NCBI RefSeq assembly: GCF_002215215.1
Contig: NZ_CP018632.1
Span: forward strand, 6,196,501-6,260,500
From: Granulosicoccus antarcticus IMCC3135
GTDB lineage: Bacteria > Pseudomonadota > Gammaproteobacteria > Granulosicoccales > Granulosicoccaceae
DNA: 64,000 bases
Reading direction: 5' to 3'
Shown in pieces: positions 29,636 to 63,284 of this stretch (position 1 is the stretch's first letter; each line of letters begins with the position of its first letter). Below the pieces are notes generated by a model. It was not told where the DNA came from. It worked only from the letters and a program-made list of their open reading frames with translations, and did no database searches. Made by a program: the position numbers and the translations under genes.

Positions 29636-30009
29636 CGCCTCATAATCATTCTATTAAGCTGGCAATAAAACACGGAAAATGATCGTAATACAGCTAATTC
29701 AATGCTTTTAATACCAAGGGCTAGTAGTCCAGCCTCTCGAGCACAAGTTTCTACCGTGCAGGCTCTTGGAGTGCCAGAAAAAGGGTTTGAACACGGCCAA
29801 CAGTACGCACAGTCAACCTTGGTACTCCAGCCCCTGCACATCCTATCTAACTGAATTATTATGCGTCAGATGCGACGTCAGATTGCAGATTTAGTCTTCT
29901 CAGGTGAACACCAGCTATTTGTGATGCAATTCACGTTATTGCCACAATCAGATTATTCCTACAAAAGAAGAAGCGCTTTCCGATTGTCAGGAGCGCTGTA
30001 ATTTTCAAC
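29636..30009. other. Intergenic region upstream of the sRNA
   Basis: About 375 bp between the start of the CsgG-like gene and the sRNA. It must contain the lipoprotein promoter (minus) and the sRNA promoter (plus). An inverted repeat AGCGCT (29972-29977 and 29992-29997) and a possible -35/-10 pair next to the RNA are listed separately. No open frame here is convincing. Confidence 0.5.
29972..30004 (+). promoter_or_regulatory. Candidate sRNA promoter and flanking inverted repeat
   Basis: TTTCCG (29977-29982), a 16-bp spacer and TAATTT (29999-30004) could form a weak promoter starting transcription at about 30010-30012, just before the first hairpin. AGCGCT at 29972-29977 and again at 29992-29997, a 26-bp dyad, flanks the -35 and may bind an activator. 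No TGTAAG/CTTACA GacA box was found. Confidence 0.35.
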
Positions 30010-30238
30010 AATGCACCTGCGGTTAAGGAAGACCGCAGCAATGAACAGGGAAGTCGGACGGCCTATCGCAGCAAGGTCACAATGACAAGGAAAGTCAGTA
30101 CATTGCAGGTGGTTCTGGTTGCAAGGATGCAGTAGCAAGGCTCAGGGATCGAGCCAGGGGAGCATGGATGCTCACCGCCATAACCACCACTGCCAAGGAC
30201 GGCACGACCCTCGGTTATCTTGCCGAGGGTCTTTTTTT
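30010..30238 (+). ncRNA. CsrB/RsmZ-type CsrA-sequestering small RNA
   Basis: About 230 nt with nine GGA motifs. Six lie in loops of short perfect hairpins: 30017-30038 (7-bp stem, loop TAAGGAAG), 30083-30097 (loop AAGGAAA), 30120-30131 (loop AGGA), 30139-30155 (loop AGGGATC), 30160-30173 (loop TGGA) and 30191-30204 (loop AAGGAC). It ends in a 9-bp terminator with seven Ts. Repeated GGA in hairpin loops is the defining architecture of RNAs that titrate CsrA/RsmA. Length is close to E. coli CsrC. Exact 5' end is uncertain. No protein-coding frame explains the pattern. Confidence 0.85.
30206..30238 (+). terminator. Rho-independent terminator of the sRNA
   Basis: GACCCTCGG (30206-30214) pairs perfectly with CCGAGGGTC (30223-30231) around an 8-nt loop and is followed by seven Ts (30232-30238). 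Textbook intrinsic terminator on the plus strand. Confidence 0.92.
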
Positions 30239-30679: not shown

Positions 30680-32261
30680 CCTGAATATTTCATCGGCCTC
30701 AAGTAATGCAACTACGTCACCTTGTTGAGCATAAATCAGTGCCGATAGCACCAAAAGTGACTATTTTTTTGAGTTTCGGGTACAGGCCCCCTTTCCCCCA
30801 TCTCGGCTGGCCAGAGATTTCATAGCCAATGGCTACGCTGCTTCTAGACGTTGCAACGCAATCAGAAAATTCTCTTTTTCTAACGCCGCGCTACTCAGCT
30901 TTATCACAATCCGTCGCGTGTTTCTGATCACCACGGCACCGATATGGACCAGGCGCTGGCGCAACGTCCATACCTGGGCCCTGGCCAGTGAGGTTCCTGC
31001 CAATCCTTTCTCTCGCACCGTCTGCCATAACACATACCCCAGTGAGGAGAACATCACGCGCAGCTGGTTGCTCCACCAAGCTGTGCAACTTGTACGGTCA
31101 GCAAATAGACCCATCTGCAGCTCTTTGTGCCGATTTTCCATGGTCCCACGTTCGCAATAGACCTCGCTATAGAGCTGTTCAGCTTCGCCAACCAGATCCG
31201 TGACGATAAAGCGTTGATTGGGTCCTATCTCGTTGTATTCCATTTTGGCAATGACTCGGCGGGGGCGAACCCAGCTACCCGCCTGGTAGTCAATATCCTT
31301 GAATACCTTGAGTGCAGGAATATCCACATCCTTGTGCTCGAACCACAGCCAGCAACTGCTCAGTGTCTCCCGGCTGACCTGACACTCGCTCATCAGCACC
31401 TTGTTGGTTGTATAACCCACAATATAGCGAACATCATGACGCTCACACCAGCTCAGCAATAGCGGCCGGTAAAAGCCCCCATCGCCACGAAAAACGATGT
31501 TCACCTGCGGCCAATGGGCTCGAATGCCTTTAACCAGCAGCGACAGCACCGCTGCCGAATGAGTGGCGTCAGGGCGATTGATGGGGCGTAGGTAACTGAC
31601 CAACAGCTTCTCTCCACAGTACACGTAGAGCGGCAGAAAGCCATAGCCATCGTAGTGTGTGTTGTATGCCCGACCTTGCTGTTCACCGTGAACACGATCA
31701 TCAGTGCCATCAAAGTCGAGAATCAAAGACTTGGGAGGCTCATCAAACGAGGCGATGAATCGCTCCAGAATCAATCGATGCATCTCAAACACCGTTTTTC
31801 TCGCTTGTACCGTTGAATGCTGAGCGATAGCAGCTTCCATTCGGCAGAGTGTGGGAGCGCTACCCATGGGCTCAAGCACTCCGACCGCACTTTGCAAAGC
31901 GGCGTCATGACGCAACTGTTGATGGTCATTCAAATCGGCAAAGCCTGCCGCTATAGCGAAAATACGTTGACGCACAAGCGCATCCCACTGGTGTGTCACG
32001 CCACTCTGATCGCGAGGGTCGTGCATAAGCCTGGAAGCCGCCTTGCACAGTCCGAGGCGATCATCGGCTGCCCGCAGCAGTTCAACCCCTCCAATGCCAC
32101 TGACATCTCCACCGCTGAAATCCAGTTGGATGCTACGTTTTTTCAGCTTGCGTTTGAGGGTACAATTTGACACTGGCGGGGCGCTCCTGTTTTTGATTGT
32201 AAAGCTTTGATCGGCCTACAATTTTACAGGTGCTCCGCCAACTCTTGGTGAAATATTCAGG
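30680..32261. mobile_element. Complete IS1380-family insertion sequence (1582 bp)
   Basis: Ends are 13-bp perfect inverted repeats: CCTGAATATTTCA at 30680-30692 and its complement at 32249-32261. They are flanked by a direct repeat CTAA at 30676-30679 and 32262-32265, a 4-bp target duplication as expected for IS1380. The element holds one intact transposase gene on the minus strand. It sits 42 bp before the MBOAT gene, so it separates that gene from its original upstream sequence. Confidence 0.93.
30833..32173 (-). CDS. IS1380-family transposase
   Basis: 446 residues, intact, starting with GTG. The DDE core is visible: SLILDFDGTDDRVHGEQQG contains the first catalytic Asp region, NIVFRGDGGFYRP the second, and CERGTMENRHKE the glutamate region of the IS1380 family. 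A basic N terminus (KRKLKKR) likely contributes to end binding. It catalyses cut-and-paste movement of the surrounding element. The gene is undamaged, so the copy may still be active. Confidence 0.95.
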   Translation of the reverse strand: MSNCTLKRKLKKRSIQLDFSGGDVSGIGGVELLRAADDRLGLCKAASRLMHDPRDQSGVTHQWDALVRQRIFAIAAGFADLNDHQQLRHDAALQSAVGVLEPMGSAPTLCRMEAAIAQHSTVQARKTVFEMHRLILERFIASFDEPPKSLILDFDGTDDRVHGEQQGRAYNTHYDGYGFLPLYVYCGEKLLVSYLRPINRPDATHSAAVLSLLVKGIRAHWPQVNIVFRGDGGFYRPLLLSWCERHDVRYIVGYTTNKVLMSECQVSRETLSSCWLWFEHKDVDIPALKVFKDIDYQAGSWVRPRRVIAKMEYNEIGPNQRFIVTDLVGEAEQLYSEVYCERGTMENRHKELQMGLFADRTSCTAWWSNQLRVMFSSLGYVLWQTVREKGLAGTSLARAQVWTLRQRLVHIGAVVIRNTRRIVIKLSSAALEKENFLIALQRLEAA

Positions 32262-49339: not shown

Positions 49340-50236
49340 TTACCATGGTTCAAGCGCATCTCGCACCTCCGGATACTCACTTCGATGACTCTGCTCCAGT
49401 TTGCGACGCAGTAGCCCAGCCGGGTCATCCGGAATTCGGCGCAGGAGCTGTTCAGTTGCCTGCTCATTTTCTGTCAGTGGCCGCTCGGGCGCCTCGTTAG
49501 CGCCTTGCTGTGGCCCCTCTTCCGGATCACCATCCGGTTCATTACCTTGCTGTCGAGCTTCTGCAGCCAGCGCTTCGCGCGCAGCATTTTCGGCGGCCTG
49601 CTCATCAGCCTCACTCTGTCCGGGCGGAGTTGCATTGTCTTCGCTACCTGCCGTGGACTCACCCTCCTCGCCGCCACTCCCCGGCTCACCATCAGAAGGT
49701 TGATCACCTTCCTGATCACCTTCCTGGTCGCCTTCCTGGTCGCCTTCCTGATCACCTTCCTGATCACCTTCCTGGTCACCTTGTTGATCCTGTTCTTGCT
49801 GTTCCTGCTCAGCCAACTGCTTCAGCTGTTCTGCAATATTTCGATTGCCTACCGCATTCGTGAACTCCGGATCATTCTCCAGCACTTCATCAAACTGATT
49901 GATTGCCTCATCATAACGACCTGCTTTGACTTCACTCACACCCTGGTTATAGCGCATGCGATTCGCAGCATCGATATCACCCTCCTTCAACTGCTGTTCC
50001 ACTTGCTGTGCAAAGGATGCAGCCGCCGCCTCGTAATCCCCCGCGCCATGCTGAGCCAAGCCGCTCCAGCCAGCATCCGGCGCCTTCTCCAGCAGCGTCT
50101 CGTAATCACCGTTTTCAAAAGCCTGCGCCGCTTGCTGCTCAGGTGTCTGCCACCACTCATCCCACGCAGCCTGTACGCTTGCAGCAGGTAGCAATACACA
50201 GGATGCAAACAGCCATATAGCTGAGAGCCGTTTCAT
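49340..50236 (-). CDS. batC: TPR protein of the Bat operon with GDQE tandem repeats
   Basis: 298 residues from ATG 50236, which overlaps the batB stop (ATGA). Signal peptide (about 1-23), then a TPR region (about 27-135; DAANRMRYNQGVSEVKAGRYDEAINQFDEVLENDPEF is one clear unit). Next comes a very acidic, glutamine-rich stretch with seven GDQ(E) repeats, encoded by 12-bp DNA repeats at 49700-49788, and a charged C terminus. TPR members (BatC/BatE) sit in the same place in other Bat operons. They probably hold the VWA proteins together in the periplasm. Confidence 0.8.
   Translation of the reverse strand: MKRLSAIWLFASCVLLPAASVQAAWDEWWQTPEQQAAQAFENGDYETLLEKAPDAGWSGLAQHGAGDYEAAAASFAQQVEQQLKEGDIDAANRMRYNQGVSEVKAGRYDEAINQFDEVLENDPEFTNAVGNRNIAEQLKQLAEQEQQEQDQQGDQEGDQEGDQEGDQEGDQEGDQEGDQPSDGEPGSGGEEGESTAGSEDNATPPGQSEADEQAAENAAREALAAEARQQGNEPDGDPEEGPQQGANEAPERPLTENEQATEQLLRRIPDDPAGLLRRKLEQSHRSEYPEVRDALEPW
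49700..49788. repeat. 12-bp tandem repeat array inside the TPR gene
   Basis: About seven near-identical 12-bp units (CCTTCCTGATCA or CCTTCCTGGTCG forms on the plus strand) encode GDQE repeats in frame. Since the unit is a multiple of 3, copy-number change would lengthen or shorten the linker without a frameshift. Confidence 0.85.
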
Positions 50237-62641: not shown

Positions 62642-62670
62642 GAATCACTATTTTCAGACTTCCAGATACA

Positions 62671-62699
62671 AGAAAGCCCCGCATGTAGCGAGGCTTTCT
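62671..62699. terminator. Bidirectional terminator between deacetylase and csp
   Basis: AGAAAGCC (62671-62678) pairs with GGCTTTCT (62692-62699), with an inner CGC/GCG pair. The T-rich or A-rich flanks make it usable by both convergent genes. Confidence 0.65.
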
Positions 62700-62725
62700 C
62701 GTCAAACAATGTCAGTTGACAGAGT

Positions 62726-62929
62726 TTACATAGCAGATACGTTGACTGCCGCTGGACCTTTTTGGCCCTGCTCGATGTCGAAGCTCACTTTCTGACCTTC
62801 GTCGAGAGTTTTGTAACCGTCGCCGGTGATTGCGGTGTGATGAACGAAAACGTCCTTACCGCCATCTTCTGGAGCGATGAAACCAAAACCTTTCGCCGCG
62901 TCGAACCACTTAACTGTACCAGTACTCAA
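62726..62929 (-). CDS. CspA-family cold-shock protein
   Basis: 67 residues of a single cold-shock domain with RNP1 KGFGFIAPE and RNP2 DVFVHH. It begins [15 protein letters not shown]. No ATG precedes this conserved start; TTG at 62929 with AGGG upstream gives the standard length, and longer in-frame extension to 63031 is not conserved. It binds single-stranded RNA/DNA and prevents RNA structure. A promoter about 185 bp upstream implies a long leader. Confidence 0.93.
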
Positions 62930-63284
62930 GATAATACCCTGTATCAAAAAAACAACAATATGGACATGCCATTCAGAGAGCCAGAAGCTCTTTTGCTCCG
63001 CAAACCCTCTGCGCAGGAATGTCTCTAACAATGACCGTTCACGAATGAATTCGCTTCAAGCCGCTAACGTAAACAAGTCTTCAGAATACTCTGAGAACCG
63101 CTAACAGATTTAATATAAGTAGTTTGTCCGGCAAATACAAGCTTCGGGGAATTCAGATCTCAGCTGTAACATGACATTCAAGCTACAATTGCGTGTCAAT
63201 TCACCCAAAATCCCACCACATCACCATTCGTGAGGCCTTTCTCCGAAAAGTCCCCGCTGCACCCATCGTAAATATAAATCATCA
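62930..63284. other. Divergent region with csp leader and rapA promoter
   Basis: 355 bp. It holds the csp promoter and long leader (minus strand) and the rapA upstream region (plus). Two direct CCGCTAAC repeats at 63061-63068 and 63098-63105 and a TCAGA-ATAC-TCTGA dyad at 63081-63094 lie in the early csp leader. No gene is evident. Confidence 0.5.
63112..63140 (-). promoter_or_regulatory. Candidate csp promoter
   Basis: On the minus strand, TTGTAT (63140-63135), a 17-bp spacer, and TATATT (63117-63112) fit a sigma-70 promoter. Transcription from about 63105 would give a leader of around 175 nt before the TTG start, similar to the long thermosensing leader of cspA. Confidence 0.55.

What the first reader, a model, noticed from the sequence alone, without database searches (positions are those of the whole stretch)
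30010..30238. Csr/Rsm-type regulatory RNA with six GGA-loop hairpins
Nine GGA motifs occur in about 230 nt, six precisely in loops of short perfect stems, followed by a strong terminator. This is the signature of CsrA-titrating RNAs. Such RNAs are poorly annotated outside model genera because primary sequence drifts. It implies a BarA/UvrY (Gac)-Csr global switch in this organism.
Basis: seen in the sequence. Interest (0 to 1): 0.8.

Follow-up and report, generated by a model that had tools for sequence, protein, structure and literature searches.

The report
Csr-type regulatory RNA in Granulosicoccus
A marine bacterium carries a small RNA gene whose row of GGA-tipped hairpins looks built to soak up the global regulator CsrA; it is a new, uncatalogued relative of a well-known type of RNA rather than a new kind of system.

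Summary
Window 30017-30238 (+) has nine GGA (none antisense), six in loops of perfect 4-8 bp stems, then a strong terminator; none of 5000 dinucleotide shuffles exceeds four such hairpins. The genome has the size published for Granulosicoccus antarcticus IMCC3135.

Ten homologous RNAs occur in 8 of 27 same-genus genomes, two pairs in tandem, in at least five neighbourhoods. Stems covary (25 of 46 pairs with double changes, 0/500 shuffles) while loop GGAs mostly persist. A conserved promoter block (TCAGAAATTTCCTACA-N13-TTTCCGAT) lies at nearly fixed distance upstream. The genome has four csrA genes, a UvrY/GacA orthologue beside uvrC and a BarA-like kinase.

Best reading: a GacA-activated Csr/Rsm sponge RNA, matching no Rfam family at gathering score. 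Expression, CsrA binding and GacA control are inferred. Limits: the box is a weak match to the GacA consensus; 12 of 19 genus genomes with a clear GacA orthologue gave no detectable homologue. New member of a known kind.

The parts
29946..29963 (+). Conserved upstream box AATCAGATTATTCCTACA, proposed divergent GacA/UvrY site, centred 62 nt before hairpin 1
   Evidence: Same position (62 nt in ten, 63 in one) in 11 of 11 RNAs, G034 included; commonest base 83-86% in these 10-nt bins against 44-51% from -130 to -91. Only 8 of 12 matches to TGTAAGN6CTTACA, which 212 of 400 shuffles reach.
29977..29984 (+). Second conserved promoter element TTTCCGAT
   Evidence: Commonest base 88% in this 10-nt bin over 11 RNAs.
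29984..30012 (+). Predicted sigma-70 promoter TTGTCA-17-AACAAT; start predicted near 30018
   Evidence: Consensus scan, 9 of 12 (three such sites found in 801 bases, 0.9 expected); -35 hexamer not conserved in relatives, -10 region partly.
30017..30238 (+). Csr/Rsm-type small RNA, about 222 nt
30017..30038 (+). GGA hairpin 1 (CTGCGGTT-AAGGAA-GACCGCAG)
   Evidence: GGA in the loop in 10 of 10 RNAs.
30039..30105 (+). Domain closed by CAATG/CATTG helix; holds GGA at 30049, 30056 and 30089
   Evidence: closing helix 91.8% of cells paired in 10 RNAs; interior not conserved.
30083..30097 (+). Possible GGA hairpin TGAC-AAGGAAA-GTCA inside that domain
   Evidence: not formed in the minimum-energy fold and not conserved in relatives.
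30108..30188 (+). Multibranch domain closed by GGTGGTT/AACCACC and TGG/CCA helices
   Evidence: helices 3 and 4, 85.4% and 95% of cells paired.
30119..30132 (+). GGA hairpin TTGCA-AGGA-TGCAG
   Evidence: GGA at this loop in 9 of 10; all five stem pairs show double changes, but only 70.8% of cells pair, in part because the window row is out of register by three.
30139..30155 (+). GGA hairpin GGCTC-AGGGATC-GAGCC
   Evidence: GGA in 8 of 10, stem 98% paired.
30160..30173 (+). GGA hairpin GAGCA-TGGA-TGCTC
   Evidence: GGA in 6 of 10, stem 97.5% paired.
30191..30204 (+). GGA hairpin TGCC-AAGGAC-GGCA
   Evidence: GGA in 10 of 10, stem 92.5% paired.
30206..30238 (+). Rho-independent terminator
   Evidence: six of nine stem pairs with double changes.

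Best explanation
A free-standing gene for a CsrA-sequestering small RNA of the Csr/Rsm type. The BarA-like kinase phosphorylates the GacA/UvrY orthologue, which binds the conserved box about 62 nt upstream and switches on transcription from a weak sigma-70 promoter. The ~222-nt RNA ends at its own terminator, presents five or six GGA loops plus further GGA sites, and binds about three or more CsrA dimers, taking CsrA away from its mRNA targets. Shown here: anatomy, conservation, covariation, promoter block, presence of csrA, uvrY and barA-like genes. Inferred: transcription, GacA binding, CsrA binding, stoichiometry and physiological effect.
For: Six GGA hairpins, 0/5000 shuffles. Ten RNAs of 211-233 nt with 6-13 GGA against 0-3 antisense. 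46 pairs, 88.8% of cells paired, 25 pairs and 56 cells with changes on both sides, 0/500 shuffles; slid structures pair only 33-45%. GGA kept in loops in 10, 9, 8, 6 and 10 of 10 for five hairpins. Flanking genes within about 10 kb are shared only by G012, G019 and G024, so it is not a leader or 3' end of one conserved gene. Promoter block at near-fixed distance; its pattern occurs once in the 7.78-Mb genome. Four CsrA, a UvrY orthologue (42%, 93 bits above the next hit) whose ORF overlaps the start of uvrC, a BarA-like kinase. The model also picks up GGA-rich RNAs in other families, two of them with a good GacA box (G081 11/12 at 66 nt, 0/400 shuffles; G367 10/12 at 45 nt, 2/400).
Against: No transcript or binding data. 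The window's box matches the published UvrY consensus in only 8 of 12 positions, which 212 of 400 shuffles reach; in G012, G001, G026 and G034 another place in the 250 nt upstream matches better, and in G020 equally well. 12 of 19 genus genomes with a GacA orthologue of 49% identity or more show no homologue. G001 has the RNA but only a 30% GacA hit (an 84% complete assembly). The alignment for the pair counts was fitted to a structure I drew from four of the ten sequences, which favours it. G020 and G026 keep the stem but not the GGA of the 30139-30155 hairpin.
Confidence: 0.92

Rival explanations
1. A CsrA-binding RNA as above, but not activated by GacA: the conserved upstream block binds another regulator.
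For: Box is a weak match to TGTAAGN6CTTACA; a second element, TTTCCGAT, is equally conserved and unlike it.
Against: The right half (CCTACA, or CTTACA in G034) is kept in eight of eleven RNAs, G001, G020 and G026 departing in one or two bases; the position, 62-63 nt, is close to the 66 nt of G081, whose box matches 11 of 12; the GacA orthologue is found in 19 of 27 genus genomes.
Confidence: 0.2
2. A structured small RNA acting by base pairing (Hfq-type) in which GGA-rich loops serve as pairing seeds, not CsrA sites.
For: Some sRNAs use purine-rich or GGA-containing loops for pairing (recalled, no call).
Against: Five separate loops keep little more than the GGA motif while several stems change; pairing seeds would be expected to keep longer stretches; csrA is present four times.
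Confidence: 0.05
3. Chance cluster of hairpins, a coding stretch or a mobile repeat.
For: GGA count alone is within chance (303/5000); an IS transposase lies downstream (30833-32173); GGA-rich coding repeats do exist in this window (about 49640-49890).
Against: 0/5000 shuffles, covariation, homologues in seven other genomes, no sense ORF of 60 aa or more within it.
Confidence: 0.01

Closest known systems
CsrB/CsrC of Escherichia coli (Rfam RF00018, RF00084; accessions recalled)
   Same: GGA in hairpin loops, stand-alone RNA, upstream UvrY-type box, organism with CsrA, UvrY and BarA-like kinase.
   Different: CsrB is 369 nt against ~222; its UvrY box is centred 182 nt upstream with 11/12 matches against 62 nt and 8/12 here; no Rfam match; model R2 scores E. 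coli CsrB only 9.8 bits. CsrC was not compared.
RsmX/RsmY/RsmZ of Pseudomonas
   Same: Stand-alone RNAs with several GGA and a palindromic upstream sequence (PMC2375449, passages); rsmX is the only Csr-type Rfam model listed at all (13.1 bits, E 5; overlapping matches of its clan are not listed).
   Different: Far below the gathering score of 56; the rsmX model is 114 nt long against ~222.
Pf1 sRNA of Pseudoalteromonas fuliginea and sRNAs of Alcanivorax (PMC9927453, PMC9788540; title and start of abstract in the listing only)
   Same: sRNAs of non-model marine bacteria; by its title the first is a new Csr small RNA.
   Different: Other genera; sequences not compared here.

Membership tests
Csr/Rsm CsrA-sequestering RNAs (functional class) | Several GGA motifs in hairpin loops or single-stranded stretches | tested here: met
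   Nine GGA, six in possible hairpin loops, six fully unpaired in the minimum-energy fold; conserved in homologues.
Csr/Rsm CsrA-sequestering RNAs (functional class) | Stand-alone non-coding gene with own promoter and Rho-independent terminator | tested here: met
   (prediction by sequence and changing neighbourhoods; no RNA data).
Csr/Rsm CsrA-sequestering RNAs (functional class) | Genome encodes CsrA | tested here: met
   Four copies over the Pfam cut-off; main copy 85% identical to E. coli CsrA, followed by tRNA-Arg and tRNA-Ser.
Csr/Rsm CsrA-sequestering RNAs (functional class) | Upstream GacA/UvrY inverted repeat TGTAAGN6CTTACA | tested here: inconclusive
   Conserved box at a fixed place but only 8/12 matches in the window, reached by 212 of 400 shuffles.
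Csr/Rsm CsrA-sequestering RNAs (functional class) | GacA/UvrY and GacS/BarA present | tested here: met
   for the kinase 28% identity and matching domains (HAMP just below its cut-off), orthology not proven.
Csr/Rsm CsrA-sequestering RNAs (functional class) | RNA is expressed and binds several CsrA dimers, relieving CsrA targets | not testable with these tools
   Needs experiment.
Rfam CsrB, CsrC, RsmX, RsmY, PrrB_RsmZ (homology families) | Covariance-model score at or above the gathering score | tested here: not met
   None at gathering score in the window or in the loci that hold the homologues; rsmX 13.1 of 56 bits.

The most novel reading that the evidence does not exclude
A distinct, so far uncatalogued family of Csr sponge RNAs in the family of Granulosicoccus. 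It has its own architecture (5' hairpin, a closed variable domain, a three-hairpin multibranch domain, 3' hairpin), is doubled in tandem in two of eight genomes, and is driven by a two-part promoter in which a divergent GacA box and a separate TTTCCGAT element, 13 nt apart, are both required, so that a second regulator is wired into the Csr switch.
Probability: 0.35. Interest if true: 0.5.

Novelty: new member of a known kind. Interest (0 to 1): 0.4.

Why it matters
Csr RNAs change so fast in sequence that searches and Rfam can miss them, as here. This locus lays out a complete case (RNA, promoter block, csrA, uvrY, barA-like gene) in Granulosicoccus, a genus found on kelp blades at up to a million cells per square centimetre (PMC9238374, passages read). 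The covariance model made from it also catches GGA-rich RNAs, two with good GacA boxes, in other families, so it could help fill this gap. If true, CsrA control of surface life in kelp bacteria becomes directly testable.

Tried and rejected
Rfam at gathering threshold on the window and on 16 fetched loci: only a cspA thermoregulator elsewhere in the window. Rfam at E up to 10 or 1: nothing above a family's gathering score. RNAalifold on four sequences paired the terminator with the 5' domain; I drew the structure by hand instead. BLASTN found homologues in 3 of 56 other genomes, the covariance model R1 in 7 of 56. Of the seven further genomes with weak R1 matches, G018, G010 and G015 were read and rejected (2-4 GGA); the G010 stretch has TCAGAATTGCCTA about 70 nt upstream, as the true ones have a box, but lies mostly in a 488-aa ORF. 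G048, G027, G043 and G054 matched in part only and were not read, nor was the third G019 match. Weak R2 matches in G067, G058, G057, G061 and G065 and second matches in G000 and G020 were read and rejected (0-4 GGA, no box); those in G005 and G012 (18-28 nt) and the second in G015 were not read. G026:C97 (143 nt, 5 GGA, no box) is left open. Class-level matches G203 and G382 rejected, G046 (5 GGA to 0) and G392 (4 to 0) left open. The 49.7-kb GGA cluster is a coding repeat. A pattern scan of named genomes gave one Bacteroidetes contig, not followed. A LetA box recalled from memory (TNAGAAATTTCTNA) was found in no held paper and is not used as evidence. No held paper has Granulosicoccus with CsrA or with small RNA.

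Full report
What is there. On the + strand, 30017-30238 is a 222-nt stretch with nine GGA and none on the other strand. Six GGA can lie in loops of perfect 4-8 bp stems, and a terminator with a 10-bp stem and seven T ends it. Five of the six hairpins are in the minimum-energy fold; the one at 30083-30097 is not. Of 5000 dinucleotide shuffles of 30017-30205 none has more than four such hairpins, and of 12,764 stretches of 189 nt in the window (10-nt steps) this is the only one with six. The number of GGA alone is unremarkable (303 of 5000 simple shuffles reach nine). Both strands fold well, so strand is set by GGA, terminator and promoter. No sense ORF of 60 aa or more lies within it. A sigma-70-like promoter (TTGTCA-17-AACAAT, 29984-30012) would start the RNA at about 30018.

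Where it is. The window lies in a 7,783,862-bp single-contig genome, the exact size a published survey gives for Granulosicoccus antarcticus IMCC3135 (PMC10272867, one passage read). Neighbours are a CsgG-domain ORF upstream on the other strand and an IS transposase downstream.

Relatives. BLASTN found the RNA in three of 56 other genomes. From these four sequences I drew a structure by hand and built model R1. R1 over 57 genomes (own included) found ten RNAs with E below 1e-14 in eight genomes, all of the same genus; G024 and G019 each have two in tandem. Seven further genomes had weak matches; three were read and are not such RNAs, four partial ones were not read. Model R2 from the ten confirmed 8 of 27 genus genomes. 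Of 40 family genomes drawn it added one shorter RNA (163 nt, six GGA, none antisense) in another genus, G034, at E 4e-5. In 19 of 27 genus genomes nothing convincing was found; ten of these are at least 90% complete.

Neighbourhoods. G012, G019 and G024 share their flanking genes; G000, G001, G014, G026 and G034 share none beyond distant matches of widespread domains; G020 lies on a 3950-bp contig with one other ORF (ORFs of 100 aa or more within about 10 kb, BLASTP E 1e-15). So the RNA sits in at least five settings in the genus and a further one in G034.

Conservation. Over the ten RNAs 88.8% of cells pair, 25 of 46 pairs show changes on both sides, and no shuffle of 500 reaches this; structures slid by 1-3 columns pair 33-45%. 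The alignment was fitted to the structure, which favours it. The hairpin at 30119-30132 changes on both sides in all five pairs (70.8% of cells paired) yet its loop keeps GGA in 9 of 10; the first and last hairpins keep GGA in 10 of 10, the others in 8 and 6. In G012, G024a and G019a the hairpin at 30160-30173 has TGA instead, and in G014 GGT, so single sites come and go, as expected if the number of sites matters more than each one.

Promoter. Measured from the first hairpin over eleven RNAs (G034 included), the commonest base has a share of 44-51% from -130 to -91, 58-61% from -90 to -71, 83, 86, 68 and 88% in the four 10-nt bins from -70 to -31, 46-48% from -30 to -11 and 68% from -10 to -1 (one base of G026 dropped for register; by chance this share is well above 25%, so the far upstream values serve as the baseline). 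The block reads TCAGAAATTTCCTACA, 13 bases (14 in G026), TTTCCGAT. Its first part is centred 62 nt before hairpin 1 in ten of eleven RNAs and 63 in one. The published UvrY consensus is TGTAAGN6CTTACA (PMC4682653, passages read). The window's box has 8 of 12 matches, reached by 212 of 400 shuffles. So the case for GacA rests on position, conservation and the mostly kept right half, not on the match itself. A pattern for the block, made from these RNAs, occurs once in the window's genome and 22 times in 48 family genomes; 11 of the 22 precede the eleven RNAs (by construction), and only these are followed by six or more GGA in 200 nt; the reversed pattern occurs five times.

Partners. Four CsrA genes score over the Pfam cut-off; the main one is 85% identical to E. 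coli CsrA and followed by tRNA-Arg and tRNA-Ser, the tRNA kinds that lie beside csrA in E. coli. The best UvrY match (42%, 169.9 bits against 76.5 for the next) is a 215-aa ORF that overlaps the start of the only uvrC (625 aa) on the same strand, the same order as in E. coli. A full-length BarA match (28%) has HisKA, HATPase, REC and Hpt domains and a HAMP match just below its cut-off. In the genus 19 of 27 genomes have a GacA orthologue of at least 49% identity (one of them partial); seven of these 19 have the RNA, and G001 has the RNA without a found orthologue. The six closest GacA sequences (78-100%) all come with the RNA; of the next five (72-66%) only G020 does. This suggests that the RNA drifts out of reach of the model rather than that it is absent; that is inference.

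Wider. R2 over 369 class genomes (stricter filters) gave eight weak matches besides G000 and G014. Four are GGA-rich with terminator-like ends by eye: G081 (5 GGA to 1 antisense), G267 (6 to 2), G337 (10 to 1), G367 (10 to 5). G081 and G367 have good GacA boxes (11/12, 0 of 400 shuffles; 10/12, 2 of 400) at 66 and 45 nt; G337 (8/12, 136 of 400) and G267 (7/12, 393 of 400) do not. None matches Rfam at gathering score. G203 and G382 look like chance, G046 and G392 are open. That a model trained on the Granulosicoccus RNAs, without their promoters, picks out RNAs with GacA boxes elsewhere is modest independent support for the class.

Known or new. It works like CsrB/RsmZ by anatomy and meets most testable marks of the class, the GacA box being inconclusive. 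It is not a member of any Rfam Csr family by score; R2 gives E. coli CsrB 9.8 bits. The review PMC7652899 (passages read) describes single-stranded GGA in hairpin loops as CsrA sites, and a SELEX consensus RUACARGGAUGU; loops such as CAAGGATGG and CATGGATGC here resemble it. New member of a known kind.

Noticed in passing
window 62668-63094 (-): Rfam cspA thermoregulator (108 bits, E 1e-26), the only Rfam gathering-level match in the window.
   Followed up: no
window about 49640-49890 (-): GGA-rich stretch that is a coding repeat (GDQE repeats) in a 324-aa ORF; a look-alike of a Csr RNA, explained.
   Followed up: yes
L086 1501-1675, L090 1501-1701, L089 1501-1645, L085 1501-1695: GGA-rich RNAs with terminator-like ends in four other families of the class, two with good GacA boxes, none matching Rfam at gathering score: possible further uncatalogued Csr RNAs.
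   Followed up: partly
L010 9874-10500; L033 1090-1723: Tandem pairs of the RNA about 180-200 nt apart, each copy with its own promoter block.
   Followed up: partly
L001-L004: Four CsrA paralogues in one genome (51-85% identical to E. coli CsrA), a possible division of labour.
   Followed up: no
window 29977-29984: TTTCCGAT element as conserved as the proposed GacA box; binder unknown.
   Followed up: partly
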